From NCBI RefSeq assembly GCF_004054105.1, contig NZ_SBLC01000002.1:62001-126000 (forward strand): a stretch of DNA of 64,000 bases. The letters run 5' to 3'. The notes under the pieces were generated by a model, which saw only the letters and a program-made list of their open reading frames with translations, did no database searches and was not told where the DNA came from. The translations under genes and the position numbers were made by a program. Positions 14,176 to 31,518 of the stretch are shown in pieces; position 1 is the stretch's first letter, and every line of letters begins with the position of its first letter. The DNA comes from Falsigemmobacter intermedius. GTDB lineage: Bacteria > Pseudomonadota > Alphaproteobacteria > Rhodobacterales > Rhodobacteraceae.

Positions 14176-14265
14176 GGGCGGGTCTCCGGGTAAAACACAG
14201 GGGCCGCGCCGGAGCGCCGCCTCTGTCCTCTACAAATCCGAAAGCCCTGCCGCAAGTCATAGGGA

Positions 14266-15067: not shown

Positions 15068-15366
15068 GCGGGGCTCTCTCAGGCGGTCTTCTCAATGTCA
15101 CTCGACAGACTCAGGCTGCAACGGGGCCTTATTTTATCAGGGGGTAAATTTTATAAAGTCCCGCTTTTCAGCCCGATCGCCCCCGGGGCAGCCGCTTCTG
15201 CCCGAAGCAAAGGCATTGCAGCGCTTTTCCTTGCGGCCCTGAGAGCGTATATAGTCCCGCAGGCCCGGTTGACGGGCAGAAGAATGAACCGGGGCGCGAG
15301 CCCCCGACTGGCTCCCCCGCGCGCAGGCGCGACGCCGGTCTGGCGCGGAACCTGATCGAGGACGGC
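15068..15366. other. Intergenic region between preT remnant and accB
   Basis: This 299-bp stretch separates divergent preT and accB and must contain the accB promoter. A TATATA sequence at about 15249 is the best -10 candidate, but no -35 at the normal distance was found. GC-rich inverted repeats occur at 15290-15345 in the probable 5' leader. No convincing gene is seen. Confidence 0.35.
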
Positions 15367-15861
15367 ATGAGCAAAAACAACCACGAAGCCGATGTGGCTT
15401 TCATCCAGGCACTCGCAGAGCTGCTGAACCGCAACGAGCTGACCGAGCTTTCGGTGAAGCGCGAATATGGCGAAGACGACAGCCTTGACGTGCGCGTCGT
15501 GAAGCAGTCGACCGTCGTGCAGGCCGCACCGGTGACCTATGCCGCCGCTCCGGCCGCAGCAGCCCCCGCCGCAGCAGCCGCTGCCGCTCCGGCCACTGCT
15601 GCGATCCCGGAAGATCCGGCACAGCATCCGGGCGCGGTCACCTCGCCCATGGTCGGCACCGCCTATCTGGCCGCAGAGCCGGGTGCCGCGCCCTTCGTTT
15701 CGGTCGGCGCGCAGGTCTCGGAAGGCCAGACCCTGCTGATCATCGAAGCGATGAAAACCATGAACCACATCCCGGCGCCGAAATCGGGCACCGTGAAGCG
15801 CATCGTGGTCGCAGACGGCACGCCGGTTGAATTCGGCGCACCGCTGATGATCATCGAGTGA
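15367..15861 (+). CDS. accB: Biotin carboxyl carrier protein of acetyl-CoA carboxylase
   Basis: A 164-residue carrier subunit that shuttles CO2 between biotin carboxylase and carboxyltransferase in the first committed step of fatty acid synthesis. It has an N-terminal interaction domain (1-50), an Ala/Pro-rich flexible linker (about 53-80), and a C-terminal biotinyl domain with the biotinylated Lys130 in EAMKTMN. The start is ATG 15367. accC follows after 10 bp, so the two form an operon, as in most Rhodobacteraceae. Confidence 0.97.
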
Positions 15862-15871
15862 GGTCAAAGGC

Positions 15872-17218
15872 ATGTTCGACAAGATCCTGATCGCCAACCG
15901 GGGGGAGATCGCGCTGCGCGTGATCCGCGCCGCCCGTGAAATGGGGATCAAATCGGTCGCCGTGCATTCGACCGCAGATTCGGACGCCATGCATGTGCGC
16001 ATGGCCGACGAGTCGGTCTGCATCGGCCCGCCGTCCTCAACCGACAGCTATCTGAAAAAGTCGGCCATCATCTCGGCCTGCGAGATCACCGGCGCACAGG
16101 CTGTGCACCCGGGCTATGGCTTCCTGTCGGAAAACGCCTCTTTTGCGCAGGCGCTGGAAGATCACGGCCTCGTCTTTATCGGCCCGACCGCGGATCACAT
16201 CCGCATCATGGGCGATAAAATCACCGCCAAAGAGACCGCGAAAGAACTGGGTATCCCGGTTGTTCCCGGCTCGGCTGGTGGGGTTGCGGATTTTGAAACG
16301 GCGCTGAAAGTCGCGGAAGAGATCGGCTATCCGGTCATCATCAAAGCAACCGCCGGTGGTGGTGGCCGGGGCATGAAAGTGGCCCGCGACGCATCCGAGC
16401 TGGAGGTGTCCTTCCGCACCGCGCGTTCGGAAGCCAAGGCCGCTTTCGGCAACGACGAAGTCTATATCGAGAAATATCTTCAAAAGCCGCGCCACATTGA
16501 GGTGCAGGTTTTCGGCGATGGCAAAGGCAATGCGGTTCATCTTGGTGAGCGCGACTGCTCGCTGCAGCGCCGTCACCAGAAGGTCTTTGAAGAGGCCCCC
16601 GGCCCCTCGATCACCCCGAAACTCCGCTCGGAGATCGGTGAGGTCTGTGCCGCAGCGATGCGCAAGCTGAAGTATATCGGCGCGGGCACCATCGAGTTCC
16701 TTTACGAAGACGGTAAGTTCTATTTCATCGAAATGAACACCCGCCTTCAGGTGGAGCATCCGGTGACGGAAGCGATCTTCGGTGTCGACCTCGTGCGCGA
16801 ACAGATCCGCGTGGCCGCAGGCCTGCCGCTGTCCTTCACCCAGGATGAGCTGGAAATCAACGGTCACGCCATTGAAGTCCGGATCAACGCTGAGCGTCTG
16901 CCGAACTTCGCGCCCTGCCCCGGCACCGTGACCCAGTATCACGCCCCCGGCGGTCTGGGTGTGCGGATGGACTCGGCGCTTTATGACGGCTACCGCATCC
17001 CGCCCTACTACGACAGCCTGATCGGCAAGCTGATCGTGCATGGCCGCGACCGTCCCGAAGCTCTGGCCCGTCTGCGCCGCGCACTGGGCGAGCTGATCGT
17101 GGACGGCGTCGACACCACGGTGCCGCTGTTTAACGCGCTGCTGGCAGAGCCGGACATTCAGAACGGCGAATACTCCATCCACTGGCTTGAAAAGTGGCTG
17201 GACAAGCAATTCGGCTAA
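15872..17218 (+). CDS. accC: Acetyl-CoA carboxylase, biotin carboxylase subunit
   Basis: A 448-residue ATP-grasp enzyme that carboxylates the biotin on AccB. Signatures include the N-terminal [31 protein letters not shown], the glycine-rich ATP lid [25 protein letters not shown], and the catalytic [16 protein letters not shown] region. Length is normal for the single-function subunit (about 449). Its 3' end overlaps the start of aat by 25 bp. Confidence 0.98.
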
Positions 17219-17826
17219 GCCCCGAGCTGCTGCTTCGTGCCTATGCCATGGGGATCTTCCCCATGGCAGAAGGCCGCGATGATCCGGAAATTCACTGGAT
17301 CGACCCGCGACGACGCGGGATTTTCCCTCTCGATCAGTTTCATATCTCCCGCTCACTGGCCCGCCGCATCCGACGGGGCGGCTATGAAGCGGTGGTCAAC
17401 GAAGATTTCCGTGAGACCGTCCGCGCCTGCGCTGCGCGTGAAGAGACCTGGATCAATGAGGAGATCTTTGATCTTTACGGCCAGCTTCACGACATGGGCT
17501 TCGCCCACAGCCAGGAAATCCGCATCAATGGCGACCTGGTCGGCGGCGTTTACGGCGTGGTGCTGGGCGGGGCCTTCTTCGGCGAGAGCATGTTTTCGCG
17601 CGTGACCGACGGCTCAAAACTGGCGCTGGCGCATCTGATGGCGCGGCTGCGCGCCGGGGGATTCACGCTTTTTGACACCCAGTTTCTGACCCCGCATCTC
17701 GCCTCGCTCGGCGCGATTGAAATTCCCCGCGCAGACTACCGCAAACGGCTTGCCGCCGCTCTGGAGGGTGAGGCAGATTTCTTCCGCAGCCCGGGCGAGT
17801 GGCCTGTTCGCCGCGACGGGCCATGA
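17194..17826 (+). CDS. aat: Leucyl/phenylalanyl-tRNA--protein transferase
   Basis: A 210-residue enzyme of the N-end rule pathway that adds Leu or Phe from tRNA to proteins with N-terminal Arg or Lys, marking them for ClpAP. Family signatures are [14 protein letters not shown], the [14 protein letters not shown] strand, [20 protein letters not shown], and [16 protein letters not shown]. The start is GTG at 17194 inside the accC 3' end; nothing shorter keeps the [10 protein letters not shown] start of the domain. The accB-accC-aat arrangement is a known Rhodobacteraceae gene order. Confidence 0.95.
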
Positions 17827-17949
17827 GACCGCCTGATGGGCGGCCTCAAGCAGATGCTGACCCGGGGCGCACTCCGGCTGGCGCATTATGGCTTTGACCG
17901 GACGCCCGGCTGCGGGCTGAACTCCCCGGAGGGATCTCAGCAGAGGCAT

Positions 17950-17972
17950 CCGGGGCGGAGCGGCCGCCCCGG
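17950..17972. terminator. Hairpin between convergent aat and GNAT genes
   Basis: A perfect 9-bp stem (CCGGGGCGG at 17950-17958 with CCGCCCCGG at 17964-17972) and a 5-nt loop sit 9 bp beyond the GNAT gene stop. No T-run follows; it could serve either strand. Confidence 0.45.
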
Positions 17973-17981
17973 GACTGAGCC

Positions 17982-18524
17982 TCAGTCGAGCTTTTTCATA
18001 TAGGTCCAGGTCGGCACACGGGCGTTGCGCGCCACACTGAAGGTCTCGGCATCGCCCAGATAGTCAAAACCGGCCTGGGTCAGAACCCGGGCAGAGCCGG
18101 GGTTGTCCTGATGCACCGCCGCACAGATCGTGCGGTCATTGAGCGGATTGGCCGCGATCAGCGCCTTCACCGCCTCAGAGGCGATGCCGGTGTTCCAGAA
18201 GGCCGGCGCGACCCAATAGCCAATCTCAGACTGACCACGGATCACATGCTTGAGGCTGATCACACCGATCACTTCCGGCCAGCCTGAGCGGGTGCCGTCA
18301 ATGATCCAGGCATCTTCTTCACGACCGGGTTTTGAGACGCGCTCAACCCAGGCCTCAATGGCGCCAGGCGGCAGGGGATGCGGGATAGAGGAGGTCATCC
18401 GCGCAACGCGGGCATCGCCGGCATGAAAGGCAAGAAGGCCGGCATCCGATTTGCGCACGGCGCGCAGTTCAAAGCGCTCAGCTATGATGGCGGGGACCTG
18501 ATCGGCCAGATGTTCCATCTTCAT
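17982..18524 (-). CDS. GNAT-family N-acetyltransferase (RimJ/RimL-like)
   Basis: A 180-residue acetyltransferase of the RimJ/RimL-like branch of GNAT enzymes. Typical parts are the N-terminal FELRAVRKSDA strand, the central IGVISLKHVIRGQSEIGYWVAPAFW, the acetyl-CoA loop region NTGIASEAVKALI (equivalent to the usual Q/R-x-x-G-x-G/A), and the C-terminal NPGSARVLTQAGFDYLG. The substrate (ribosomal protein, tRNA or small molecule) cannot be told. It is a single gene ahead of rpmA on the same strand. Confidence 0.82.
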   Translation of the reverse strand: MKMEHLADQVPAIIAERFELRAVRKSDAGLLAFHAGDARVARMTSSIPHPLPPGAIEAWVERVSKPGREEDAWIIDGTRSGWPEVIGVISLKHVIRGQSEIGYWVAPAFWNTGIASEAVKALIAANPLNDRTICAAVHQDNPGSARVLTQAGFDYLGDAETFSVARNARVPTWTYMKKLD

Positions 18525-18615
18525 CGCTTTCCTCCCTGAAAAGCGTGAGGGTGTCTTTAAGCCCCGTCCCGGCCGCCCGACCGGATCTGCGGGGCCAAAT
18601 TCACGGTTTCCCCGA

Positions 18616-18652
18616 AAAGGGTCGGGGGACCGGCGTTTCCGCCGATCCCCCG
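18616..18652 (-). terminator. Rho-independent terminator of rplU-rpmA
   Basis: On the minus strand CGGGGGATCGGCG pairs with CGCCGGTCCCCCG (18623-18652) with one mismatch, followed by ACCCTTTTC. It lies about 30 bp beyond the rpmA stop. Confidence 0.65.
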
Positions 18653-18671
18653 TTTACATTCCGAATGTAAA
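18653..18671. repeat. Palindrome TTTACATTC-C-GAATGTAAA
   Basis: A perfect 9-bp inverted repeat with a single central base lies between the rpmA stop (18680) and the terminator hairpin. It is AT-rich against a GC-rich background. It may be a protein-binding site or a small transcript hairpin; its role is unknown. Confidence 0.6.
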
Positions 18672-18679
18672 GGTTCGGC

Positions 18680-18949
18680 TTATTCTGCAGCTTCTGCGGT
18701 CTGGACGACCGAAATGAAGGTGCGGCCTTTCAGGCCTTTGCGGAACTCAACGCGGCCATCGGTGGTCGCGAAGATGGTGTGGTCGCGGCCCATGCCAACG
18801 TTCTCGCCCGGGAACCATTTGGTGCCGCGCTGACGAACGATGATGTTACCGGCGACGCAGACCTGGCCACCGTAGAGTTTTACGCCAAGGCGGCGACCAG
18901 CTGAGTCGCGGCCGTTGCGGGAGGAACCGCCAGCTTTTTTATGTGCCAT
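18680..18949 (-). CDS. rpmA: 50S ribosomal protein L27
   Basis: An 89-residue large-subunit protein near the peptidyl transferase centre. It has the diagnostic N-terminus [20 protein letters not shown], then LGVKLYGGQ, and the [20 protein letters not shown] core. It follows rplU by 13 bp, the universal rplU-rpmA order. Confidence 0.98.
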
Positions 18950-18962
18950 GGGAGGTTACTCC

Positions 18963-19349
18963 TTATTTCGATTCGTGTGCTGCACGACGCGCGTCGGCAG
19001 TACCGGTTGCTGCAGCAACGCCCGAAGCTTCTGCGCCCGAAGCGAGAATGTCGGTGACGCGGACCAGGGTCAGCTTCTGACGGTGGCCTTTGGTGCGCTG
19101 CGACGAGTGCTTACGACGACGCTTGACGAAGTTGATGACTTTGTCAGCTTTGATCTGGTCGATAACTTCAGCCTGAACAGCTGCACCGGCAACCAGCGGA
19201 GCGCCAACGGTCAGGGTCTCGCCGCCAACCATCAGGATCTCGTTGAACTGGATCTTGTCACCAGCCGAAGCTGCAAGCTTTTCAACGCGCAGGACGTCAC
19301 CGGCCTGAACTTTGTATTGCTTGCCGCCAGTCTTGAGGACCGCAAACAT
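18963..19349 (-). CDS. rplU: 50S ribosomal protein L21 with C-terminal extension
   Basis: A 128-residue L21. Residues 1-103 are the normal protein (MFAVLKTGGKQYKVQAGD, FNEILMVGGE, and KRRRKHSSQRTKGHRQKLTLVRVTDI). An extra Ala-rich tail of about 25 residues (ASGAEASGVAAATG...RRAAHESK) is added, as often seen in alphaproteobacterial L21. It is the first gene of the L21-L27 operon. Confidence 0.97.
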   Translation of the reverse strand: MFAVLKTGGKQYKVQAGDVLRVEKLAASAGDKIQFNEILMVGGETLTVGAPLVAGAAVQAEVIDQIKADKVINFVKRRRKHSSQRTKGHRQKLTLVRVTDILASGAEASGVAAATGTADARRAAHESK

Positions 19350-19505
19350 GGTCTTTCCTTCCTACAGTTTCCGCGTCCTGCGGCCCCGGAGTTTCCCCCG
19401 ATGTTGATGCCTTCGGACTGCGCGCCCCGGAACGGGTGGACCCCGGCGGAGCGTCAAAAAAGAACTCCGGCCCCGAGTCGCCCCGGTCCGGATGGACGCT
19501 TCTCG

Positions 19506-19528
19506 CAATAACGCCCCCCCTAAGTCAA
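19506..19528 (-). promoter_or_regulatory. Possible rplU promoter
   Basis: On the minus strand a TTGACT hexamer (19523-19528) is followed by a G-rich spacer and a weak -10-like region near 19506. It would give a leader of about 150 nt before rplU. The -35 is good but the -10 is poor. Confidence 0.35.
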
Positions 19529-19574
19529 GCCTTATGGCAGCCCGGAGAGGCGGTTTCGCCTTTTAAAATAAGGC

Positions 19575-20399
19575 TCAGATGTCGCGGCCGGTCAGCATCC
19601 CGGCCGCCGCCGTGCCAAGGTCGCGCGAGACCACCGCAAAGACCTTATCAAAGGTCGCAAAAAGCGCGCGGTTGAGAAGCTGCCCCTCAGGGGATTGGGA
19701 AAATTCAACATAGGCTGTCAGCTCAGCATCGCTCAGCGGACGGTAAGCCATGGCGAGGTAAGGCAAAAGCCAGGAGGCGGTCTCCTCACGGATCGCATCC
19801 TCCTGCGACCACAGATCCGCCATCATATCAGGATCAGGCACATCTTCGTCAAAAGCCCCTGCCGCGCGCATGCCCTGATAGAAGGCCAGATTGGCATTCA
19901 TGCCGCCCGCAACGTTCTGCTCGATCAGATCATTGGTCTCGATCAGCCGCTCAATCAAAACAACGCGACCAGGAAGATCGACGCCGAAGTTGCCCCAGGC
20001 CCGCTCTGCCGCCGCTTTGACCTGATCGTCGAGATAGGCGCGACGGGCCTGCACCTCAAGATCGCTGATCCTCTGGCCTGTGGGGCTGTCGAAAAAGGCC
20101 CGCATCTTCGCCACCGCTTCCGGCTGGTCTTCAAGACGCGCTTCCAGATCGGCTTCCGCCATCTCCTGCATCACAGCCGGGGCATGGATCCGGGTGACCT
20201 CACGGGTCCAGCGCGCCCCGCCCTCTCCGGGAAAGAGATCCGCTTCAAGGCCTTCGCCAAAGCGCAGCCCCTCATCGCTCAGCACTTCAAAAAGTTCGGT
20301 GAAGCGCAGTGAGGCCGCCAGCTCGCGCACCGGACCCGCAAGCCCGGGGCCGGACATCAGCAAAACCAGCAGGACCGGCGAGAAGAGGCGCGCAAACAT
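19575..20399 (-). CDS. DUF2059-containing secreted protein
   Basis: A 274-residue protein with a clear N-terminal signal peptide (LFSPVLLVLLMSGPGLA, cleavage after AGPGLA-type end), so probably periplasmic. The C-terminal half matches the DUF2059 pattern (YRPLSDAELTAYVEFSQSPEGQLLNRAL), in which a helix pair with a PEGQ/PTGQ motif recurs; a second copy of a similar motif (FFDSPTGQRIS) lies in the first half. Function is not established for the family. It lies between rplU and the tRNA-Ser units and shares no operon. Confidence 0.72.
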   Translation of the reverse strand: MFARLFSPVLLVLLMSGPGLAGPVRELAASLRFTELFEVLSDEGLRFGEGLEADLFPGEGGARWTREVTRIHAPAVMQEMAEADLEARLEDQPEAVAKMRAFFDSPTGQRISDLEVQARRAYLDDQVKAAAERAWGNFGVDLPGRVVLIERLIETNDLIEQNVAGGMNANLAFYQGMRAAGAFDEDVPDPDMMADLWSQEDAIREETASWLLPYLAMAYRPLSDAELTAYVEFSQSPEGQLLNRALFATFDKVFAVVSRDLGTAAAGMLTGRDI

Positions 20400-20495
20400 T
20401 CAGGGAAACTCCGACAGGGTCCGTCACTTTAGCCTGCCCTGCGCCCCGCGCGAAGGCCAGTGAAAAAAATGTGTGTTTTTCCCGACTTTTCCCCC

Positions 20496-20524
20496 TTGCG
20501 GCCAGGCACAGCCCTCAGTAGAAA
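20496..20524 (+). promoter_or_regulatory. Promoter of tRNA-Ser copy 1
   Basis: TTGCGG (20496-20501), a 17-bp spacer, then TAGAAA (20519-20524). The tRNA begins 28 nt after the -10. The same -35 and spacing occur before copy 2. Confidence 0.6.
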
Positions 20525-20552
20525 CCGCCCCAGACGACCCCCAGATGTTCAC

Positions 20553-20642
<90 letters not shown>

Positions 20643-20877
20643 CATCCCTCTGATGTGGCATTTTTCCCCCCGGACTAAATCGACAGGCTCTCAAAGCGCG
20701 CTTTGATATGTTCTGGCCCTCCTGCGGATCTCGCATCAAGGCAGACCCGCGGTGCGCAGCCTGATGCCGGCCCTTTTCCACAAGCCTCTGACCTTAAAGT
20801 CTTTCCTGTAATCCCCCGGCTCCCTAACGCTGAGAACAGCCGCGCGAAAAACTTCGCTGCGATGCGCGTTTCCCCTC

Positions 20878-20906
20878 TTGCGGCCCTCTGCGGCCCCGGC
20901 TAAACA
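20878..20906 (+). promoter_or_regulatory. Promoter of tRNA-Ser copy 2
   Basis: TTGCGG (20878-20883), a 17-bp spacer, and TAAACA (20901-20906). This second promoter shows that copy 2 is its own transcription unit. Confidence 0.6.
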
Positions 20907-20934
20907 CCGCCTCAGACGACCCCCAGATGTTCAC

Positions 20935-21024
<90 letters not shown>

Positions 21025-21162
21025 CATCCCCACGGGATGCGGCACTCCGGCTCAGGCCGGATTTTTTATTTTCCATCACAGACTTGCGGGCAAAGTCCGA
21101 TCTGCGGCATTCAGGTCTGCGGCTGCGTCTTTGCGCAAACCCCTGCGACAGGTGAGGTGAGC

Positions 21163-24100
21163 ATGCGTGCTCTCGGGCAAAAAACCCTGATTTCAGCGGC
21201 AGATCTGCTGCGCTTTTCAGCCTGCGCCCATGCCCGCCGGCTTGATCTGCAGCACGCGCCTCAGCCTGCCTCCGCCGCACTTGTGCAGGCGGCAGCAGCG
21301 ACGCTTGAGGCCATGCGCCGGGGCGATGACCTCATCAGCCCTGCGGTTTTTCTGACAGGAGACACTCTCGCGCAGGCCGATTTTCTGCGCCGCGTTCCCC
21401 GCCCGTCAAAGCGCGGCACGCAAAGCTATGAGCCCGGTCTGATCACCACCGAAGCGCCCGGCCCCGCCGGGGTCATTGCCCTCGCCCTTTGTGCCGATCT
21501 GATGGCGGACGTCCAGGGAGAGGTGCCGCAGGCGGCGCATTTCGGGCCGGACAGTCAGACGACCACCCCGCTGCCGCTGCGCGATTACATTCACTACACC
21601 CGCAGTCTTCATGCCCGGCTGAAAGCCTTCAGCGCAGACCCTCCGCAGACCCGCCCGCAGCCCTGCGCGGGGTGTGGCGACTGCCGCTGGCAGCCGCAGT
21701 GCCGGGCGCGCTGGCAGGCTGAGGACAGTCTTTATCAGCTCGCCGGGCTAAAACGCGGCCAGGCAAAAGCGCTGATCGCTGCGGGGGTAGAAACCCTCAC
21801 CGCGCTGTCAGACCTGAGCGCCCCGCCCCGGGGGCTGACGGAGGGCACCACCGCCCGCCTTGCGGCGCGGGCACGGCTGCATCTTTCAGGGGATAAGGGG
21901 GCCACCCGCTTTGAGCCGCGCCCCGCCAGCCCCGGTCAGGGCTTTGATCTTCTGCCTGCGCCGCAGGAGGGGGATGTTTTTTACGCGCTCAGCGGCGAAA
22001 ACCATGCTCTCGGCAGCGGTGAGACCCTCATGCTTTACGGGCCGGGCGCGGCGGAGCTCACCCGCCTGCCCGACGATCTGAAACGCCATTTTGAGCGCTT
22101 CCCCACCGCGCAGATCTGCCATTTCGGCCCTGAGCCCTCAAACGCGCTGAAGCGGCTGACGACCACCCTGGGCTCCGGCGAAGCCTTCCTCGACCGGCTG
22201 CTGCGCGAGCGGCGTCTGACCGATCTTGCCGCCGTGCTGCGGGGGGCTTTCCTCTGCGCAAAGCCCCCTGCCCGGATCGCGGATCTGGCGGAATTTCTCG
22301 GCCTGCCGCCCCTCACAACCGAGCCTTCGGCTGATCTGGCCTGCCGGCTGACCGAAGACCTCCGCGCCTGGCTTTTGCAAAATCGCCCCGAGCGTCCCTG
22401 GCCGCAACCCGCCCCCCAGGCCGCCGAAAAGGAAAGCCTGGAGGACAGCGAAAGCGCGGAACTGCGCGCCCTCCTGGCTGCCTCAGATCTGAGTGCAGAG
22501 CGTCAGGCGATGCTCTTTGATCTGGGGATGTTTCACCGCCGCGAAGTGAAGCCCGCGCAATGGGCGGTCTTTTCCTCTCTCAGCAAAGAGGAGGAGGAAC
22601 TTCTTGAGGATCTCGATGCGCTTGGCGGTCTGATCGCAGTCAGCCCGGTTGAGCCGGTGAAACGCTCGTTCCGGCGCAGCTACCGCTTTCCGCCGCAGGA
22701 GACGAAACTGCGGGCGGGCAAGCGCGTCACCCTGCCGGTCGAAGACGGCCCGCCTGCTTCGGTCACCATCGAGGAAATGGACCGCCGCGCCGGGCACATT
22801 ACGCTCAAAGCCGGGCCGGGCAAGGCCGCGCTGCTGGGCGAGCGGCTGAACCTGCACCCCGACTGGCCGCTCGACACCAAAGTCCTCGCAGCGGCGCTGC
22901 GCGATGTCATTGAGGATCAATGCGGCCCCCGTCAGTACCGCGCGGTGGAGGATCTGCTCTCCCGCAGCCCCCCGCGGCTGAGCAGCGGCCCGCTGAGCGC
23001 AATGGACGATCCGGTCAGCGCCGTTGTGGCGGCGACCAGCGCTCTCGATCACAGCCTTTTGCCGATCCAGGGACCGCCCGGCACCGGGAAAACCTATGTC
23101 ACCGCCCGCGCGATCCTTGCGCTGCTGCGCCAGGGGGCGCGGGTGGGCGTGACGTCGAACAGCCATGAGGCCATCCGCAATGTGCTGACCGGCTGCCTTG
23201 CGGCCGCAGAGAGCGATGATCTGCCCTTCACCCTTGATCTTGTGCACAAAACCTCCGGCCCGGAGGATGGCTACCCCGAAGACAGCCCCGTGCGGCGCAC
23301 CACCAGCAACGAAGAAGCGGCGGGCGGGCGGCATATCGTCGGTGCCACGGCCTGGTTCTTCTGCCGGGATGAGAATATCCAGGCCTTTGACTGGCTCTTT
23401 GTCGATGAGGCCGGACAGGTGGGCCTCGCCAATATGACCGCCATGGGGCGCGCGGCTAAAAACATCGTTCTGGTGGGTGATCCGCAGCAGCTGCCTCAGG
23501 TGGTTCAGGGCCTGCATCCGGAACCGGCGGGACGCTCCTGCCTGGAGTGGGTGATCGGCGGCGATGGCACGGTGACGCCAGATCGCGGGATCTTTTTGTC
23601 GGTGTCGCGGCGGATGCACCCGGAGGTCTGCAGCTATATCTCAGATCAGATCTATGCCGGGCGGCTGACGAGCCATCCGGAGACCGCATTGCAGGGCGTG
23701 ACGGGCTGTCGCTATCCGGCAGCAGGCGCCTTCTTTGTGCCCCTCGATCATGAAGGCAACAGCCAGACCGCCCCGGAAGAGGCCGCAGCCATCCGCGAAG
23801 CGGTGAGCGAACTGCTCAAGGGCTGCTGGCAGGGCAAAACCGGTGCGCCCCGTCCCATGAGGCCACAGGATATCATTGTGGTCGCGCCCTATAATGCCCA
23901 GGTCAATGCGCTGCGCGAGATCATGCCGCCGGGGATCCGGGTCGGCACGGTTGACACCTTTCAGGGCCAGGAGGCCCCGGTCTGCCTCGTGTCGATGACG
24001 GCCTCATCGGCGGAAGAAAGCGCGCGGGGGATGGAGTTTCTGCTCTCGCTCAACCGGATCAATGTGGCGGTCTCACGGGCCAAAGCCCTGGCGCTGGTCT

Positions 24101-24192
24101 TTGGCGCGCGCCGCCTGCGCGAGGCGGCCTGCAGCAGCATCAACGAAATCCGCCTCGTGAACACCCTCTGCGCGCTGCCGGTCTGCTCCTGA
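21163..24192 (+). CDS. TM0106-like RecB nuclease/SF1 helicase fusion with degenerate nuclease sites
   Basis: About 1009 residues from ATG 21163 (GAGG upstream). Residues 1-230 resemble the TM0106-type RecB-like nuclease (ISAADLLRFSACAHARRLDL, QADFLRR, cysteine cluster CAGCGDCRWQPQC). Residues about 265-400 resemble its RNase H-like domain. Residues about 560-1009 form a Dna2/UPF1-type helicase with Walker A GPPGTGKT (about 636), DEAGQ, GDPQQLPQ, SVSRRMHPEV, TVDTFQGQEA and NVAVSRAKA, all intact. The usual YEVVDTK catalytic motif is replaced by YEPGLITTEA, and the FFDLEGDP motif by FYALSGENH. It is probably an ATP-driven DNA or RNA translocase without nuclease activity. Confidence 0.8.
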   Translation: MRALGQKTLISAADLLRFSACAHARRLDLQHAPQPASAALVQAAAATLEAMRRGDDLISPAVFLTGDTLAQADFLRRVPRPSKRGTQSYEPGLITTEAPGPAGVIALALCADLMADVQGEVPQAAHFGPDSQTTTPLPLRDYIHYTRSLHARLKAFSADPPQTRPQPCAGCGDCRWQPQCRARWQAEDSLYQLAGLKRGQAKALIAAGVETLTALSDLSAPPRGLTEGTTARLAARARLHLSGDKGATRFEPRPASPGQGFDLLPAPQEGDVFYALSGENHALGSGETLMLYGPGAAELTRLPDDLKRHFERFPTAQICHFGPEPSNALKRLTTTLGSGEAFLDRLLRERRLTDLAAVLRGAFLCAKPPARIADLAEFLGLPPLTTEPSADLACRLTEDLRAWLLQNRPERPWPQPAPQAAEKESLEDSESAELRALLAASDLSAERQAMLFDLGMFHRREVKPAQWAVFSSLSKEEEELLEDLDALGGLIAVSPVEPVKRSFRRSYRFPPQETKLRAGKRVTLPVEDGPPASVTIEEMDRRAGHITLKAGPGKAALLGERLNLHPDWPLDTKVLAAALRDVIEDQCGPRQYRAVEDLLSRSPPRLSSGPLSAMDDPVSAVVAATSALDHSLLPIQGPPGTGKTYVTARAILALLRQGARVGVTSNSHEAIRNVLTGCLAAAESDDLPFTLDLVHKTSGPEDGYPEDSPVRRTTSNEEAAGGRHIVGATAWFFCRDENIQAFDWLFVDEAGQVGLANMTAMGRAAKNIVLVGDPQQLPQVVQGLHPEPAGRSCLEWVIGGDGTVTPDRGIFLSVSRRMHPEVCSYISDQIYAGRLTSHPETALQGVTGCRYPAAGAFFVPLDHEGNSQTAPEEAAAIREAVSELLKGCWQGKTGAPRPMRPQDIIVVAPYNAQVNALREIMPPGIRVGTVDTFQGQEAPVCLVSMTASSAEESARGMEFLLSLNRINVAVSRAKALALVFGARRLREAACSSINEIRLVNTLCALPVCS

Positions 24193-24528
24193 TCGGCCCT
24201 GCGGGAGCCGCAATGGTGACAGAGCCTCACCGGGACTGATGACGGGGGGCTCATGCCCAGCGGCTTACTCCAAAGCGTGACCCGACCTCCCTTCGGCTCT
24301 CCCCTGGTGAGCAATGTCACCCGGGGCGGGCCGAAAGGCTAATACCGCAGACAAGCGCGCGCCAAAGCAGATCGCAGCCGGACCGATCACCGGCCGGGCG
24401 GGCAATGGCGCTTTCGCGTGGTGCCCGGCGCGGATCTGCCGCAGCAAAAACGATAAGGGCCAGCCTGCCCGCGCAGCGCTGGCCCCTCCTGCGGGCAGAG
24501 ATCTGTCCGCGGCCGCCTGAGCCCCGTC
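24193..24528. other. Intergenic region between helicase and hslU
   Basis: A 336-bp gap between convergent genes. It contains the hslU-side terminator described separately and several short GC-rich inverted repeats near 24345-24420. No convincing open reading frame or RNA gene is seen. Confidence 0.4.
24440..24485 (-). terminator. Terminator of the hslV-hslU operon
   Basis: On the minus strand GGGCCAGC pairs with GCTGGCCC (24478-24485 with 24457-24464), followed by TTATCGTTTTTG. It lies about 45 bp after the hslU stop. Confidence 0.7.
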
Positions 24529-25833
24529 TTAAAGGACGTAGCGTCCCAGATCGGCCGACCGCGCCAGCTCACCCAGCTGCGCTTCGACATAAGCCGCATC
24601 GATCACCACAGCCTCGCCGCCGCGATCGGGAGCCGCGAAGGACAGCTCTTCAAAGACCCGCTCCATCACAGTGTAAAGCCGCCGTGCACCGATGTTTTCC
24701 ACCGTGCGGTTCACCTCTGCCGCAATGCGGGCCAGCGCGTCGATGCCATCTTCTGCAAAGGTGACAGTGACACCCTCAGTCGCCATCAGCGCGGTGTACT
24801 GACGGGTCAGCGCATTGTCGGTCTCCGTCAGGATGCGGCGGAAATCGCCCTCCGTCAGCGCCTTCAGCTCCACCCGGATCGGCAGACGGCCCTGAAGCTC
24901 CGGCAGCAGGTCCGAGGGTTTGGCCACATGGAAGGCCCCCGAGCAGATGAAGAGGATATGATCGGTCTTCACCGCACCGAGCTTGGTTGAAACCGTCGTG
25001 CCCTCAATCAGCGGCAGCAGATCGCGCTGCACGCCTTCGCGGCTGACATCCGCGCCCCGGGTCTCGGCCCGCGCAGCAACCTTGTCGATCTCATCAATGA
25101 AGACGATGCCCGATTCCTGCACGGCTTCGAGGGCTGCGGCCTTGACCGCATCATCATCGAGCAGCTTGTCCGCCTCTTCCGAGATCAGAACCTCATAGCT
25201 TTCCGCCACGGTCATCCGCTTGCGGGTTTTGCGCCCGCCAAAGGCTTTACCCAGCAGATCCTGCAGACCCTGCATCTGATCCATGCCGCCGCCGGGCAGA
25301 CCCGGCATCATCTGCAGCGCGGGCGCCGCTTCCGAGACCTCAATCTCAATCATGGTCTCATCAAGCTCACCGCGCTTGAGTTTGGCGCGGAACATCTCGC
25401 GGGTCTGCTCGCGGGCATCGGCACCGGCGATGGCGGCGACGACGCGGTCTTCCGCCGCCTGATGGGCGCGGGCCTTCACCTCTTCGCGCATACGGGCGCG
25501 GGTGTCATGCATGGCCACATCCGCCAGATCGCGGATGATGCTGTCGACGTCACGGCCGACATAGCCCACTTCGGTGAACTTCGTGGCCTCCACCTTCAGG
25601 AAGGGGGCCTGAGCGAGCTTGGCCAGACGGCGCGAAATCTCGGTTTTACCCACACCGGTCGGGCCGATCATCAGGATGTTTTTCGGCTGCACCTCTTCGC
25701 GCAGACCACCCTCAAGCTGGCGGCGACGCCAGCGGTTGCGCAAAGCCACGGCGACTGCGCGTTTCGCATCGGACTGGCCGATGATGAAACGGTCAAGCTC
25801 GGAGACGATTTCGCGTGGGGTCAGATCAGTCAT
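24529..25833 (-). CDS. hslU: HslUV protease ATPase subunit
   Basis: A 434-residue AAA+ unfoldase of the HslUV (ClpYQ) protease. It has Walker A GPTGVGKT (57-64), the pore-loop [14 protein letters not shown], Walker [11 protein letters not shown], a sensor region [15 protein letters not shown], and the C-terminal GRYVL that inserts into HslV. The start is ATG 25833; the ATG overlaps the stop of the upstream membrane gene (ATGA). The operon order is hslV, membrane gene, hslU. Confidence 0.98.
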
Positions 25834-26879
25834 ATCCGTTGTCCATAGGGAGGAAGGCGGGTCTTGCCGGGAAACTCCGGCAGCGCCCGCAAAAGCGCCC
25901 CGCGCAGCCGGTCCCACTGCGCGCCAAGGAACACGAGGCCAAGGCCCAGTCCCAGGATCACCAGCATCGGGCTGTCAAACAGGGCAAAGACGATCCCGAC
26001 GGCATAGGCCGCGCCGGAAACAAGGAAAGAACGCCGGTCAATCACCAGAGCCACCAGCGCCAGCAGGCACAGGATCGCCAGCAAAGGCAGGCTGTGGTCA
26101 TAGCTCAGCAGCCGCAGCGCCAGCGGGTTGATGATCGCAGGAGCGGCAAGAACATGCAGCCAGAAACCGGTCGCCGCCCGGGTCGAGATCCGCCGCGGAT
26201 CGCTGAGATCAAAGCGCATGGCCAGCGCAAAGCAGCCCAGACCAAAGCCCATCGACAAAAGCGCAGGAAGTCCCGAGGAGGAGAAATGCAGCAGCGCAAA
26301 GGCGTCATCCGGCACCATGTTGCGATGCGCCAGCCAGGTCCAGACCGTGGTGAAGACCGCCCCGCCGATCAAAAGCGCATCAAAGGGCACGCGGAAGATG
26401 CGGTAATGCACCATCATCCCCACAGCCGCCGTGGCGAAGGTCAGCGGCTTGAGCAGGCCGAAAGGCAGATCCAGCGCCTCGCCCAGAATACCGCCAAGCG
26501 TCAGAAAGCTCAGGCCAAACATCACCGCCAGCGCGATGGAGGGGGCCACCATCCGCCGCGTCAGAGTGAAATAGCGCTGCACGCCGTAAAGTCCCGCCAA
26601 CGTCAGCGCCACCCCCGCCAGCGAGGACAAAGTGCCCGGCAGGCCCTCTGCCGTCAGAATGGCCGCCAGAACCCCGGTCCAGCCCGCAAAAAGGATGCTC
26701 AGCCCGATGACGATGAAGATCTCATTGAAACCGCGAAAAAGCTGAAAGGGCTCTTCCGAGGGGGCAAGGCCCGCAGCTTCCTGCATCCGCTGGTCCGCCA
26801 GCGCCGTCAGCCCCGTGGCCTGAGCCTCAGAGATCAGGCCGGAGCGGACCGCGGTCTTGAGATCCTCAGAGGTGATCAT
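25830..26879 (-). CDS. Multi-spanning membrane protein between hslV and hslU (DUF2157/DUF4401-like)
   Basis: A 349-residue protein. The first 45 residues are a soluble helical head ([20 protein letters not shown]), followed by about ten transmembrane segments (for example [21 protein letters not shown]) and a short basic tail. This is the layout of DUF2157-type membrane proteins, whose function is unknown. It overlaps hslV and hslU by 4 bp each (ATGA twice), so it must be co-translated with the protease. That position suggests a link to membrane protein quality control, an inference only. Confidence 0.72.
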
Positions 26880-27454
26880 GGGGCGGGCACGCGCTCAACG
26901 GTCAGATTGCCGTTGGTATAGACGCAGATCGAAGCCGCGATGGCCATGGCTTTGCGCGCCACATCTTCGGCAGAAAGATCGGTCTCCATCAGACCGCGCG
27001 CCGCCGCCAGGGCGAAGTTGCCGCCCGAGCCGATGGCCGCCACGTCATGTTCCGGCTCCAGCACATCGCCCGCACCGGTGATGACGTAAAGCCCCGCCCC
27101 GTCGGTCACGATCAGCATGGCCTCAAGATTGCGGAGGTATTTATCCATCCGCCAGTCTTTCGCCAGATCCACGCAGGCGCGCAGAAGCTGGCCCGGCGCG
27201 GCTTCAAGCTTGCGCTCAAGACGTTCAAGAAGCGTGAAGGCATCCGCAGTCGATCCGGCAAAGCCCACCACCACATCACGGCCGCCCGGCGAAAGCCTCC
27301 GCACTTTGCGTGCGGTGCCCTTAATCACCGTCTGACCAAGGCTCACCTGGCCATCGCCTGCGATCACCACTTCACCGCCCCGGCGCACACCAAGAATCGT
27401 CGTCCCGTGCCAGCCGGGGAATTTATCGTCAGCCATCGTGCCGCGCTCCGTCAT
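26876..27454 (-). CDS. hslV: HslUV protease proteolytic subunit
   Basis: A 192-residue threonine protease subunit. The mature N-terminal Thr lies in [13 protein letters not shown]; the sequence before it is a propeptide. The core [39 protein letters not shown] and [16 protein letters not shown] match the family. The start is MTERG at 27454; MADDK at 27436 is an alternative, as neither has a strong ribosome site. Expressed with the membrane gene and hslU; commonly heat-shock induced. Confidence 0.97.
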
Positions 27455-27505
27455 AGTCCTGATCCGATATGGCGGCAGGACCGCTGAGGCGCAAGACCGG
27501 CGGGA

Positions 27506-27982
27506 TTAATCGGCTGCGAGCGCCAGCGGCAAAATCGTGGTGGATTTAATCTCTTCCATGCTCAGAAGCGCGGTGACGTTGTAAATCCGAACCTCAGAGA
27601 TCAGCGCCTGATAGAAGGTGTCATAGGCGCGGGCGTTTTTCACCCGGACCTTCAGGATATAATCGATATCCCCCGCAAGGCGATGCGCCTCCAGCACTTC
27701 GGGGCGGCTTTGCAGAACCTGCAAAAACTTACCCTGCCAGCCCGCATCATGCTCTGACGTCCGCACCAGGACGAAGAAACAGGCCTCAAGCCCGAGCGCC
27801 TCGGCATCCAGCAGCGCCGTGGTGCGCAGGATGACGCCACTTTCTTTCATCCGCCGGATACGGTTCCAGACCGGCGTTTTGGAGCTGCTGACCCGCCGCG
27901 CGATCTCATCAAGAGAGAGCGAGGCATCTTCCTGGAGTGCAGCAAGGATTTTCCGATCCATCTCATCCAGACGGGCAGCCAT
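27506..27982 (-). CDS. Lrp/AsnC-family transcriptional regulator
   Basis: A 158-residue regulator with an N-terminal helix-turn-helix (LDEMDRKILAALQEDASLSLDEIARRV) and a C-terminal RAM effector domain (AHRLAGDIDYILKVRVKNARAYDTFYQALI). These proteins sense amino acids such as leucine. The start is ATG 27982, which has AGGAG 9 nt upstream; the longer 183-residue reading has no good start. It is divergent from the ferredoxin-NADP reductase gene across 293 bp, which may mark its target or only its own regulation. Confidence 0.88.
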   Translation of the reverse strand: MAARLDEMDRKILAALQEDASLSLDEIARRVSSSKTPVWNRIRRMKESGVILRTTALLDAEALGLEACFFVLVRTSEHDAGWQGKFLQVLQSRPEVLEAHRLAGDIDYILKVRVKNARAYDTFYQALISEVRIYNVTALLSMEEIKSTTILPLALAAD

Positions 27983-28275
27983 ACCATAGATCTCCTGATG
28001 ACCGGGACAGAAGGGCCCCATTTGCCTATATATCCGGGAATTTATCCCAAAGCTCAAGGGCGGAACCGCAGATCAGAGGGGCGATCTTCCTGCTGCCTGC
28101 CCCGTGACGATCCGCCACCCCTGCCCGCAGTGCGCCGCGGCCGCATCACCCTCTCGCGCGGCTTTCCCTTTGCCTGAGTTTTCGTTAAGGGAAAAGCCGT
28201 TCTGAGTGCGGCCCGCAGATCGGGTCGCGACCTCGCTGTTGCGGTGCCTGACACCCTGAACCGGACCCGAGACGC
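27983..28275. promoter_or_regulatory. Divergent spacer between lrp-like gene and fpr
   Basis: This 293-bp spacer contains an AT-rich patch with an imperfect inverted repeat (ggaatttatccc near 28037-28049), which could be an Lrp operator, next to the lrp-like start. No strong -35/-10 pair for fpr was recognised; no small gene is seen. Confidence 0.3.
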
Positions 28276-29094
28276 ATGACCGATACGCCCGCCTCTACCC
28301 GCCCTGCCACGCTGCTGCCCGACGCGCAAACCGTGACGGAGGTGAAACACTGGACCGACCGTCTGTTTTCCTTCCGCGTGACGCGGCCGCAAAGCCTGCG
28401 CTTCCGCTCGGGCGAATTTGTGATGATCGGCCTGATGGGCGAGAACGGCCGCCCGCTGCTGCGCGCCTATTCCATCGCCTCACCGGCCTGGGATGATGAG
28501 CTTGAGTTCTATTCGATCAAAGTGCCGGATGGTCCGCTGACCTCAAAGCTGCAGCACATTCAGCCCGGCGATCAGATCATTCTGCGGCCCAAACCCGTGG
28601 GCACCCTGGTGCATGACGCGCTGCTTCCGGGCAAACGGCTGTGGCTTCTGGCCACAGGCACCGGCTTTGCGCCCTTCGCCTCGCTGCTGCGCGAGCCGGA
28701 GACCTGGGAGAAATACGACCAGGTCGTCATGATGCACACCTGCCGTGAGGTGGCGGAACTGGCTTACGGTCAGGAACTGGTGGCAAAGCTGCGCGAAGAT
28801 GAGCTGATCGGCGAGCTGATCGGGGACAAGCTCTTCTATTACCCCACCACCACCCGCGAAGACTTCAGCCACATGGGCCGCGTCACCGACAACCTGACCT
28901 CCGGCAAAGTCTTCCGCGACCTTGGCCTCGAAGAGGGCCTGACGGCAGAGCGCGACCGCGCCATGATCTGCGGCAGCCTGGCCTTTAACGTCGATGTCAA
29001 AGCGATCCTTGAGGCGGCCGGTCTGCGCGAGGGGGCCAATTCGGACCCCGGGCATTTTGTGGTCGAAAAGGCCTTCGTCGGCGACGGCATCTGA
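28276..29094 (+). CDS. fpr: Ferredoxin--NADP+ reductase
   Basis: A 272-residue flavoprotein that exchanges electrons between NADPH and ferredoxin or flavodoxin. The FAD site is R-A-Y-S-I-A-S; the NADP site is ATGTGFAPFASLLREPETW; MICGSLAFNVDVK is the C-terminal nucleotide-binding strand. The C-terminus ends VEKAFVGDGI, the longer tail typical of alphaproteobacterial (Rhodobacter type) enzymes in place of a terminal aromatic. In that group it supports oxidative stress defence. It is a single gene with its own terminator. Confidence 0.95.
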   Translation: MTDTPASTRPATLLPDAQTVTEVKHWTDRLFSFRVTRPQSLRFRSGEFVMIGLMGENGRPLLRAYSIASPAWDDELEFYSIKVPDGPLTSKLQHIQPGDQIILRPKPVGTLVHDALLPGKRLWLLATGTGFAPFASLLREPETWEKYDQVVMMHTCREVAELAYGQELVAKLREDELIGELIGDKLFYYPTTTREDFSHMGRVTDNLTSGKVFRDLGLEEGLTAERDRAMICGSLAFNVDVKAILEAAGLREGANSDPGHFVVEKAFVGDGI

Positions 29095-29118
29095 GCCTGC
29101 CACAGCGCGAGAGACCAA

Positions 29119-29144
29119 AGGGCCGGGACTTCCCGGCCTTTTTT
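29119..29144 (+). terminator. Rho-independent terminator of fpr
   Basis: GGCCGGGA (29121-29128) pairs with TCCCGGCC (29131-29138), followed by TTTTTT (29139-29144). It lies about 25 bp after the stop. Confidence 0.9.
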
Positions 29145-30043
<899 letters not shown>

Positions 30044-30091
30044 TTCCGGGCCAAGGCCCGAACCCGAAACCGAAAACGGAAGGAACCAGGT

Positions 30092-31501
30092 ATGAGCAAG
30101 GTTCAGGACGTCCTTAAGCTTCTCAAGGACGAAGATGTCGCTTACGTCGACGTGCGCTTCACCGACCCGAAAGGCAAACTCCAGCACGTGACGCTGGATG
30201 TGGACCTGGTCGACGAAGACTTCTTTGAAGAAGGCTTCATGTTCGACGGCTCCTCGATTGCCGGCTGGAAGTCGATCGATCAGTCCGACATGAAACTGAT
30301 GCCCGATGCAGGCTCGGCCTATATCGACCCCTTCTACGCGGAAAAAACCCTCTGCGTGCACTGCGACGTGGTGGAACCGGACACCGGTGAATCCTATGAC
30401 CGCTGCCCGCGCCAGATCGCGAAGAAAGCAGAAGCCTACCTGAAGTCGACCGGTATCGGTGATGCCGCTTACTTCGGCCCGGAAGCTGAATTCTTCATTT
30501 TCGACGACGTCCGTTACTCGGTCTCGCCGCAGAAAGTCTCCTACTCGATCGACGCTGCAGGCGCTGCCTGGAACACCGATGCAGAGTTTGAATCGGGCAA
30601 CCTCGCACATCGTGCAGGCTTCAAGGGCGGCTATTTCCCGGTCAACCCGATCGACGAAGCGCAGGACCTGCGTTCGGAAATGCTCTCGACCATGAAGCGC
30701 ATGGGCATGAAGGTCGACAAGCACCACCACGAAGTGGCGACCTGCCAGCACGAACTCGGCCTGATCTTCGGTGGTCTGGTTGAGCAGGCTGACAACATCC
30801 AGAAATACAAATACGTGATCCACAACGTGGCCCACGCCTACGGCAAAACCGTGACCTTCATGCCGAAACCCATGAAGGGCGACAACGGCTCGGGCATGCA
30901 CGTGAACATGTCGATCTGGAAAGACGGCAAGCCGCTGTTCTCGGGCGACAAATACGCTGACCTCAGCCAGGAAGCTCTGTGGTTCATCGGTGGTATCCTG
31001 AAGCACGCGAAAGCGCTGAACGCGATCACCAACCCCTCGACCAACTCCTACAAGCGTCTGATCCCGGGCTTTGAAGCTCCGGTTCTGCGCGCCTTCTCGG
31101 CACGCAACCGCTCGGGCTGCGTTCGTATTCCGTGGACCGAATCGCCGAAAGCCAAGCGCGTTGAAGCCCGCTTCCCCGATCCTTCGGCAAACCCCTACCT
31201 GGCGTTTGCAGCGCTCATGATGGCCGGCCTTGACGGCATCAAGAACAAGATCGATCCGGGCCCGGCTTCGGACAAAGACCTCTACGATCTGCCGCCGGAA
31301 GAACTGGCAGCAATCCCGACCGTCTGCGGCTCGCTGCGTGAAGCGCTTGAAGAGCTGAGCAAAGACATGGACTTCCTGCTGGCGGGCGACGTCTTCACCC
31401 GCGACCAGCTGGAATCCTACATCGCGCTGAAGTGGGAAGAAGTGTATGCCTATGAGCACACCCCCCACCCGGTCGAGTACCAGATGTACTACTCCTGCTG
31501 A
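30092..31501 (+). CDS. glnA: Glutamine synthetase type I (beta)
   Basis: A 469-residue dodecameric enzyme that makes glutamine from glutamate, ammonia and ATP. It carries [11 protein letters not shown], the metal and substrate residues in [26 protein letters not shown], the ATP region [13 protein letters not shown], and [12 protein letters not shown]. The adenylylation target is Tyr398 in DLYDLPPEE, marking the beta subclass controlled by GlnE. It is expressed with glnB and ends in a strong terminator. Confidence 0.98.
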
Positions 31502-31518
31502 TCCCTTCGGGACCGGCG

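What the first reader, a model, noticed from the sequence alone, without database searches (positions are those of the whole stretch)
21163..24192. Helicase fused to two nuclease-like domains that both seem catalytically dead
Seen: the helicase motifs are intact, but the RecB-like YEVVDTK motif reads YEPGLITTEA, and the RNase H-like FFDLEGDP motif reads FYALSGENH. The Fe-S-type cysteine cluster is kept. Known: TM0106-type proteins normally cleave with those acidic residues. Inference: selection has kept the DNA/RNA translocase and a binding scaffold while dropping cleavage, which suggests a different role, perhaps remodelling R-loops or stalled complexes.
Basis: partly seen in the sequence, partly recalled or inferred. 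Interest (0 to 1): 0.65.

Follow-up and report, generated by a model that had tools for sequence, protein, structure and literature searches.

The report
Dna2-like helicase with dead nucleases
Two related bacteria carry a DNA motor that descends from a cutting enzyme found beside defence genes; nearly all residues of both cutting sites are gone while the motor part is unchanged, so it looks like a cutter that evolution turned into a pure DNA unwinder.

Summary
The ORF 21163-24192 (1009 aa) descends from TM0106-type RecB + RNase H + SF1 helicase proteins. Nearly all key residues of both nuclease domains are lost (one RecB aspartate stays); the RNase H helix bearing YN..D is largely deleted. The Fe-S cysteines and 90 of 90 invariant helicase columns are kept. 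The loss is lineage-specific: of 87 proteins aligned, only this one and its F. faecalis orthologue (76% identical, same deletions, same site) lack both sites. Since the loss both domains stayed constrained (dN/dS about 0.35; intact pairs about 0.12; helicase 0.17): relaxed, not neutral. AlphaFold still folds them. Intact relatives often lie in a WYL-regulated cassette with McrBC, Mre11/Rad50-like or Tiamat-like genes; the dead copy stands alone behind a doubled tRNA-Ser, and its genome has no match to that WYL protein. Published nuclease-dead Bad and DNA2 are unmasked, processive helicases, and DNA2's motor needs its Fe-S cluster. Best reading: a disarmed, defence-linked enzyme kept as an SF1B DNA motor, its dead nuclease folds serving as scaffold. 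Function in the cell is untested; R-loop work is one option.

The parts
21163..24192 (+). 1009-aa SF1B-type helicase with two inactivated nuclease-like domains (ATG to stop)
21163..21657 (+). RecB-like (PD-(D/E)xK, iron-staple type) domain, residues 1-165; catalytic residues lost except D73; stretch with the HE glutamate deleted
21223..21225 (+). codon of C21, first cysteine of the iron-staple pattern
21427..21456 (+). YEPGLITTEA in place of YEV.DTKLKR
21664..21702 (+). CAGCGDCRWQPQC, residues 168-180; C171, C174 and C180 fit the other three cysteines of the iron-staple pattern
21898..22437 (+). RNase_H_2-like domain, residues 246-425, no longer matched by PF13482; DxE is AxS, YN of YN..D deleted and its D is A393
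21979..22005 (+). FYALSGENH in place of FYDIEGDPH
22438..22992 (+). region between RNase H-like domain and helicase core, residues 426-610, 24 of 24 invariant columns kept
22993..24189 (+). Upf1/IGHMBP2/Dna2-like SF1B helicase core, residues 611-1009, 90 of 90 invariant columns kept
23071..23094 (+). Walker A GPPGTGKT, residues 637-644
23404..23418 (+). Walker B DEAGQ, residues 748-752
20553..20642 (+). tRNA-Ser(CGA), first copy, upstream of the gene
20935..21024 (+). tRNA-Ser(CGA), second copy, directly upstream of the gene; the doubling may mark entry of an integrative element (inference)

Best explanation
A TM0106-type nuclease-helicase, of the kind that elsewhere sits in WYL-regulated, defence-like cassettes, came to lie alone next to tRNA-Ser in the Falsigemmobacter lineage and lost both nuclease sites before F. 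faecalis and the window's species split. It has been kept since as a nuclease-free SF1B (predicted 5'-3') DNA translocase/helicase. Its Fe-S RecB-like fold and its RNase H-like fold are kept as a DNA-threading and positioning scaffold that the motor needs. With no nuclease cutting the strand, unwinding that is cryptic in active relatives of the DNA2/Bad kind would be permanently unmasked. Shown: the losses, their single origin, the constraint, the lone position, the predicted fold. Inferred: polarity, processive unwinding, the scaffold role, the defence past. Unknown: the cellular substrate (5' flaps, stalled forks, R-loops, invading DNA).
For: Motif census and invariant columns. Shared deletions, and a tree in which the window and L031 form one clade (SH-aLRT 100) inside intact copies, nearest by path to the intact copy of the same genus (that grouping has 87, with L002). 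dN/dS since the loss: RecB-like 0.36 (bootstrap 0.23-0.55), RNase H-like 0.35 (0.21-0.50), helicase 0.17 (0.12-0.23), against medians of 0.13, 0.11 and 0.14 in 289 intact pairs. AlphaFold model with mean pLDDT 87.3, the blocks of residues 1-170 at 80-94. Structural relatives are Dna2, IGHMBP2, Upf1 and Sen1. Intact relatives lie with WYL and restriction or defence genes; the window's genome and F. faecalis give no match to that WYL protein. Papers: prominent or processive unwinding by Bad and by human DNA2 was seen when the nuclease was mutated or suppressed (PMC7430649: abstract, passages, sections 14, 17 and 22; PMC5030094: abstract); the Fe-S cluster is needed for DNA2 helicase and ATPase (PMC7311471: abstract); RecC has a natural dead nuclease-like domain through which ssDNA passes (PMC1185551: abstract).
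Against: The dead domains are clearly relaxed: RecB dN relative to helicase is 3.0, beyond the intact maximum of 2.1; RNase H dN/dS of 0.349 is above the intact maximum of 0.283; a 60-codon window over the old RecB site reaches 0.64. Part of the domains may be drifting. Only two species show it. Expression is unknown; the promoter scan found none upstream, with 0.1 expected by chance, so it says nothing. The fold prediction used intact relatives, so its confidence may be borrowed, and the whole-length match to Dna2 is loose (TM 0.42, rmsd 25.9). No biochemistry exists for this protein; I found none for the intact family. Bad has a different central domain, and wild-type Bad also unwinds short substrates while degrading them (section 17), so the gain from losing the nuclease may be smaller than I suppose.
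Confidence: 0.55

Rival explanations
1. The protein still serves defence, as a nuclease-free helicase that displaces or remodels invading DNA, or as a decoy that interferes with active cassettes or with phage inhibitors of them.
For: Intact relatives sit in defence-like cassettes and on plasmids (62 records at E up to 1e-50); a related intact copy exists in the same genus. That some defence systems use helicases is recalled.
Against: The dead copy has none of the recurrent cassette partners in the 20 kb (window 13001-33000) and 15 kb (L031) compared, no match to the WYL protein in its genome, and lies at the same place in both species, which is unlike a mobile defence gene.
Confidence: 0.2
2. 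The gene is a slowly decaying pseudogene whose N-terminal half is only carried along by the reading frame.
For: Relaxed dN/dS in both nuclease-like domains; broken copies of the family exist elsewhere (an in-frame stop in each of L005, L087 and L088).
Against: The helicase is as constrained as in intact relatives and keeps 90 of 90 invariant columns; the N-terminal dN/dS upper bounds are 0.55 and 0.50; the cysteines are kept although two distant relatives lost theirs. Lack of stops alone is not counted, because selection on the helicase downstream would also remove them.
Confidence: 0.15
3. Other residues took over and one of the domains still cuts.
For: D73 is kept; E279 and E324 are shared by both dead copies close to lost acidic positions, and E324 could be the lost motif-II glutamate shifted by one.
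Against: The RecB D, K and Q positions hold different residues in the two species, none of them acidic; RNase H D275A, E277S and the loss of YN..D remove most of the usual metal site in both.
Confidence: 0.05
4. The first reader's specific role, which overlaps with the best explanation: a remodeller of R-loops or stalled transcription complexes, like Sen1, senataxin or Aquarius.
For: The helicase core is of the same SF1B group; Sen1, SETX and Aquarius (title of 4pj3) are among the structural matches. That these act on R-loops is recalled.
Against: Dna2 and IGHMBP2 match as well or better; group membership does not tell DNA from RNA work; I saw no genomic hint of R-loop work.
Confidence: 0.1

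Closest known systems
TM0106 family RecB-like nuclease-helicases (TIGR03491), e.g. the intact copy L070 of the same genus
   Same: Same domain order, cysteine pattern and helicase; descends from within this group
   Different: 77.0 bits against the cut-off 97.45 (L070: 264.6), both nuclease motif sets lost, 1009 aa against 1096 in L070, no WYL cassette
Bad (bacterial DNA2-like helicase-nuclease, Geobacillus stearothermophilus) and eukaryotic DNA2
   Same: Iron-staple RecB-like domain fused to a C-terminal SF1B helicase; engineered nuclease-dead forms are the nearest functional model (PMC7430649, PMC5030094)
   Different: Those are natural active nucleases; Bad has a central domain with no known relative according to its authors, where this family has RNase_H_2. 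I did not compare Bad's sequence with this protein.
RecC, the natural inactivated nuclease-like domain of RecBCD
   Same: A nuclease fold without catalytic features kept beside helicase machinery (PMC1185551, abstract)
   Different: RecC is a separate subunit working with the active RecB; here two unlike dead nuclease domains and the motor are on one chain, with no active partner known
FANCM (helicase with an inactive nuclease domain)
   Same: A helicase carrying a dead nuclease domain (PMC3905867, search listing only; details recalled)
   Different: SF2 helicase and ERCC4-type domain, eukaryotic (recalled); unrelated families

Membership tests
TM0106 family (TIGR03491) | Whole-protein score at or above the curated cut-off 97.45 bits | tested here: not met
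   77.0 bits for the window protein, 87.0 for L031; the intact L070 reaches 264.6
TM0106 family (TIGR03491) | RecB-type nuclease motifs (D, DxK, QxxxY) | tested here: not met
   L93/T95, A106/C110; only D73 kept
TM0106 family (TIGR03491) | RNase_H_2 domain with DxE and YN..D | tested here: not met
   A275/S277, YN deleted, A393; no PF13482 match listed at E up to 1; L070 matches at 1.8e-26
TM0106 family (TIGR03491) | Descent: helicase part nests among family members | tested here: met
   Tree of residues 426-1009, window + L031 inside intact copies
Iron-staple helicase-nucleases (DNA2/Bad type) | Four cysteines in the iron-staple pattern | tested here: met
   C21, C171, C174, C180, sequence pattern only; that a cluster is bound is not tested
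Iron-staple helicase-nucleases (DNA2/Bad type) | Nuclease motifs of the RecB family | tested here: not met
Iron-staple helicase-nucleases (DNA2/Bad type) | C-terminal SF1B helicase with intact motor motifs | tested here: met
   90 of 90 invariant columns of its own family; structural matches to Dna2, IGHMBP2 and Upf1 over residues of about 443-1009
Iron-staple helicase-nucleases (DNA2/Bad type) | 5'-3' translocation and unwinding unmasked without the nuclease | not testable with these tools
   needs purified protein
RecC-type dead nuclease scaffold | ssDNA passes through the dead domain | not testable with these tools
   needs a DNA-bound structure
WYL cassette of the intact relatives | WYL regulator next to the gene and a downstream restriction or defence module | tested here: not met
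   WYL in 23 of 28 sources compared, not in the window or L031; no WYL match in either genome

The most novel reading that the evidence does not exclude
A defence nuclease-helicase has been domesticated by disarming: freed from its WYL regulator and partner modules and stripped of both nucleases, it became a standing host motor whose unwinding is naturally unmasked. It would be a natural counterpart of the engineered nuclease-dead Bad and DNA2 mutants, with a double pseudonuclease scaffold on one chain.
Probability: 0.35. Interest if true: 0.65.

Novelty: new variant of a known kind. Interest (0 to 1): 0.5.

Why it matters
Nuclease-dead DNA2 and Bad have been studied as engineered proteins, because the nuclease hides the motor. 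A natural version, kept by selection after a single loss and with an intact relative in the same genus, gives a matched pair to ask what the motor is for and why a dead iron-sulphur nuclease fold must stay. It also looks like a clean case of a defence-linked enzyme that lost its weapons but kept its engine. The intact cassette that it seems to come from looks like a modular defence system worth testing.

Tried and rejected
Assembly or frameshift error: rejected, the same deletions are in F. faecalis. Family-wide loss: rejected. A second, intact copy in the same genome covering for the loss: not found, one match in G000. A viral carrier: the scan of viral contigs gave 4 pattern matches and no relative. 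A dead copy outside the two species: none among the proteins aligned, but the scan reaches close relatives only. Absence of stop codons as evidence of selection: computed (0 of 1000 neutral runs without a stop) but not used, since selection on the helicase would protect the frame anyway. Structure search: the VIA-align rows mostly span residues 104-1009, so a fold match for the dead RecB domain alone is inconclusive. Literature on TM0106: 2 papers hold the word, neither on this family. Literature on the cassette: the search gave one 2005 paper on the PD-(D/E)XK superfamily (listing only); with the listings I saw no paper that describes it; other wordings were not tried.

Rows not counted. Census: I left out loci that repeat another (L071, L057, L058, L059; also L009 and L019, taken as copies of L038 and L040 by equal length and identity, not compared letter by letter), loci without a frame over 950 aa (L005, L025, L028, L030, L061/L072, L083, L088) and the part loci L101-L103. 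Copies that the searches listed without a locus were not aligned either (G102:C141; G439:C29 and G497:C1), nor were weak helicase-only hits. One search used the 46 intact proteins held then (without L017, L027, L029 and all loci from L075 on). The tree leaves out 12 of the 75 (L017, L087, L027, L029, L090-L092, L096-L100). In one search, L116 repeats L097, and L125 (a 612-aa helicase-only frame) was not aligned, so 12 of the 13 relatives aligned there are new.
Full report
What is there. The ORF at 21163-24192 on the + strand is 1009 aa and open throughout. Pfam matches lie over the helicase only (AAA_12, AAA_11 and others). NCBIfam gives TIGR00376 (IGHMBP2-type helicase) and TIGR03491 (TM0106 RecB-like nuclease), the latter with 77.0 bits against a cut-off of 97.45. 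In the PDB by sequence the best matches are SMUBP-2/IGHMBP2, DNA2 and UPF1, with Sen1 further down. The own genome, G000, has a single match. Upstream lie two tRNA-Ser(CGA) genes and a gene that I read as rplU; downstream on the other strand is one that I read as hslU. Both names are recalled from the sequence; no call gave them.

The motifs. Relatives came from named genomes (26 loci) and from searches of 295 family, 5 genus, 390 order, 385 class and 398 phylum genomes (overlapping samples, only part of the hits returned as loci). In an alignment of 75 proteins, the window protein and L031 from Falsigemmobacter faecalis are the only two without the catalytic residues. The other 73 of 73 have the RNase H DxE and YN..D; 72 of 73 have the RecB D and K. 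For the remaining one, L087, an in-frame stop made my reading begin after that site, so its state was not read. Twelve further relatives from the phylum search keep both sets (12 of 12), although L119 lacks the upstream RecB aspartate and the tyrosine. In the window protein the RecB positions are L93, T95, A106 and C110 and the stretch with the HE glutamate is deleted; L031 has V, R, T and C and the same deletion. In the RNase H part both have A275 and S277, lack YN and have A393. Of the columns invariant in 46 intact proteins, the window keeps 25 of 50 in RecB, 12 of 14 in the Fe-S/linker part, 30 of 66 in RNase H, 24 of 24 in the next region and 90 of 90 in the helicase; L031 keeps 25, 11, 30, 23 and 89.

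One event, shared by two species. Contig G295:C38 has the length of the named F. faecalis contig (200354 bases) and the same locus, so I take G295 to be F. faecalis. The window's genome and F. faecalis share the deletions and the place: tRNA-Ser pair, gene, hslU. In a tree of residues 426-1009 (63 rows, quick method, SH-aLRT only) the two form one clade (100) inside intact copies, nearest by path to L070, the intact copy of a third genome of the same genus (support of that grouping 87). The other two genomes of the genus give no match. The loss therefore most likely happened once, before the two species split, and the differences between the two genes since then arose in an already dead protein.

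Selection after the loss. Between the window gene and L031, dN/dS (Nei-Gojobori, own script) is 0.36 in the RecB-like part (bootstrap 0.23-0.55), 0.35 in the RNase H-like part (0.21-0.50), 0.18 in the Fe-S/linker part, 0.22 in the region after it and 0.17 in the helicase. In 289 intact pairs, chosen for helicase dN 0.05-0.2 and gene dS 0.3-1.3 and not independent, the medians are 0.13 (maximum 0.35) for RecB, 0.11 (maximum 0.28) for RNase H and 0.14 (maximum 0.28) for the helicase. The helicase is thus about as constrained as in intact relatives. The dead domains are relaxed about threefold but stay well below 1. RecB dN relative to the helicase is 3.0, outside the intact range (maximum 2.1); RNase H, at 1.7, is inside it (maximum 1.9), though its dN/dS is above the intact maximum. 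The loosest window, residues 81-140 over the old RecB site, has 0.64. Of the invariant columns that the window lost, 31 of 36 in RNase H but only 13 of 25 in RecB were lost the same way in both species (deletions counted): the RNase H-like part looks held in its new state, the RecB site looks freer.

Does something else take over? Acidic residues shared by both dead copies and rare in intact ones include E279 (in place of D), D305, E324, D374 and E387. E324 could be the motif-II glutamate moved by one position. With DxE and YN..D gone this should not rebuild a usual two-metal site (inference from the DEDD family, recalled). The RecB replacements differ between the two species, save C110. I regard both sites as dead, with high but not complete certainty.

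Fold. The AlphaFold model of the window protein has mean pLDDT 87.3 and pTM 0.81; blocks of residues 1-170 are at 80-94, the RNase H-like part is more uneven (71-92), and residues 284-297 are under 50. The intact L070 model has 88.1. Comparing the element lists, the window protein lacks L070's helix 44-66 and strand 71-73, one strand near 329-341, helix 444-457 and the first half of helix 460-487, which carries YN..D; the cores of both domains remain. The alignment contained intact relatives, so this supports a folded domain but does not prove it. Foldseek's best match is Dna2 (5ean_A, 1164 alignment columns, but TM 0.42 and rmsd 25.9, so the domains do not superpose as a whole), then IGHMBP2, Sen1 and Upf1. 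VIA-align gives Z 22.0 for IGHMBP2 (4b3g_A, rmsd 4.5, 519 aligned) and 20.5 for Dna2 (rmsd 4.9, 539 aligned, residues 347-1009), near-tied and over the helicase half. For the intact L070 model IGHMBP2 is first (Z 29.0) and Dna2 has Z 20.4.

Where intact copies live. In 28 sources (window 13001-33000, L031, L070 and 25 named loci) compared with a simple ORF caller, a WYL-domain regulator is close by in 23, a 210-259 aa protein (one tested, no family) in 13, an McrB-like frame in 14 (in L041 and L048 only a short one) with McrC in 13, an Mre11-like phosphoesterase in 5 with a Rad50-like ATPase in 6, and a Tiamat-like (TmtA) protein in 3 (families tested on one member each). The window and L031 have none of these. 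The WYL protein of L033 has no match in either genome, but one in G296 next to its intact copy and weaker ones in G296 and G297; G000 has one McrC-like gene elsewhere. No PADLOC model covers this enzyme: MkoA and MkoC match over the helicase, and DruK weakly over the RecB part of L070 only. Homologues occur on 62 plasmid records (E up to 1e-50; 19 with 80% or more of the query), 25 of them typed conjugative. The WYL regulator BrxR represses a defence island (PMC9122601, passages). I infer that the intact gene belongs to a modular defence system and that the dead copy is a disarmed descendant. The defence role of the intact gene is not tested.

How it most likely works. In Bad and DNA2 the iron-staple nuclease domain and the SF1B motor are one machine. 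The nuclease hides unwinding, and mutating or suppressing it gives a processive 5'-3' helicase (PMC7430649: abstract, passages, sections 14, 17 and 22; PMC5030094: abstract), although wild-type Bad also unwinds short substrates while degrading them (section 17). Loss of the Fe-S cluster takes away DNA2's helicase and ATPase as well (PMC7311471: abstract), and in DNA2 the strand threads through a tunnel that holds the nuclease site (PMC4716839: abstract). By analogy this fits the pattern here: catalytic residues lost, cysteines and fold kept, motor untouched. Two distant relatives, L120 and L122, show the reverse by this alignment, cysteines lost and catalytic residues kept, so the cysteines are not fixed in the wider family. 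RecC is the known precedent of a dead nuclease-like domain used as a passage for ssDNA (PMC1185551: abstract). The substrate in the cell is open. R-loop work is one of several options and I give it about 0.1.

Novelty. Dead nuclease domains beside helicases are known (RecC; FANCM, search listing). A protein of the DNA2/TM0106 type that lost two unlike nuclease sites while selection kept the motor did not appear in the listings, none of which was worded for exactly this. I call it a new variant of a known kind.

Noticed in passing
L070 7131-17326; L033 3740-14276; L035 3347-13040; L041 4206-13959: Intact TM0106-type nuclease-helicases recur with a WYL regulator and one of three swappable downstream modules (McrB-like + McrC; Mre11-like + Rad50-like; Tiamat-like TmtA). 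Looks like a modular defence system; no PADLOC model matched the enzyme over its length.
   Followed up: partly
window 20553-20642 and 20935-21024; L031 5191-5280 and 5802-5891: tRNA-Ser(CGA) is doubled in front of the gene in both species; in the sister genomes G234 and G296 the rplU-side DNA is followed within about 1.1 kb by one strong tRNA-Ser match. May mark entry of an integrative element at this tRNA.
   Followed up: partly
window 44866-45824: Five tRNA-Gly(GCC) genes in a row at an exact spacing of 221 bases.
   Followed up: no
L120, L122: Two distant relatives lack the Fe-S cysteines by alignment but keep both sets of catalytic residues, the mirror image of the window protein.
   Followed up: no
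L042 1430-4726: A copy in a MAG labelled Kaiparowitsia (cyanobacterium) groups tightly with those of sphingomonads; contamination or recent transfer.
   Followed up: no
L072 4606-5007: A fragment of the same family (L070 residues 860-993, 74% identical) near the end of contig C3 of genome G296: a decayed second copy.
   Followed up: no
L044 3834-4532: A TIR_2-domain protein near the gene; the same protein cluster occurs in four rhizobial-type loci (L044, L052, L053, L056; only L044 was tested for the domain).
   Followed up: no
G000:C144:2535-3479 (L108): The window's genome has one McrC-like gene elsewhere (69.8 bits to PF10117), not examined further.
   Followed up: no
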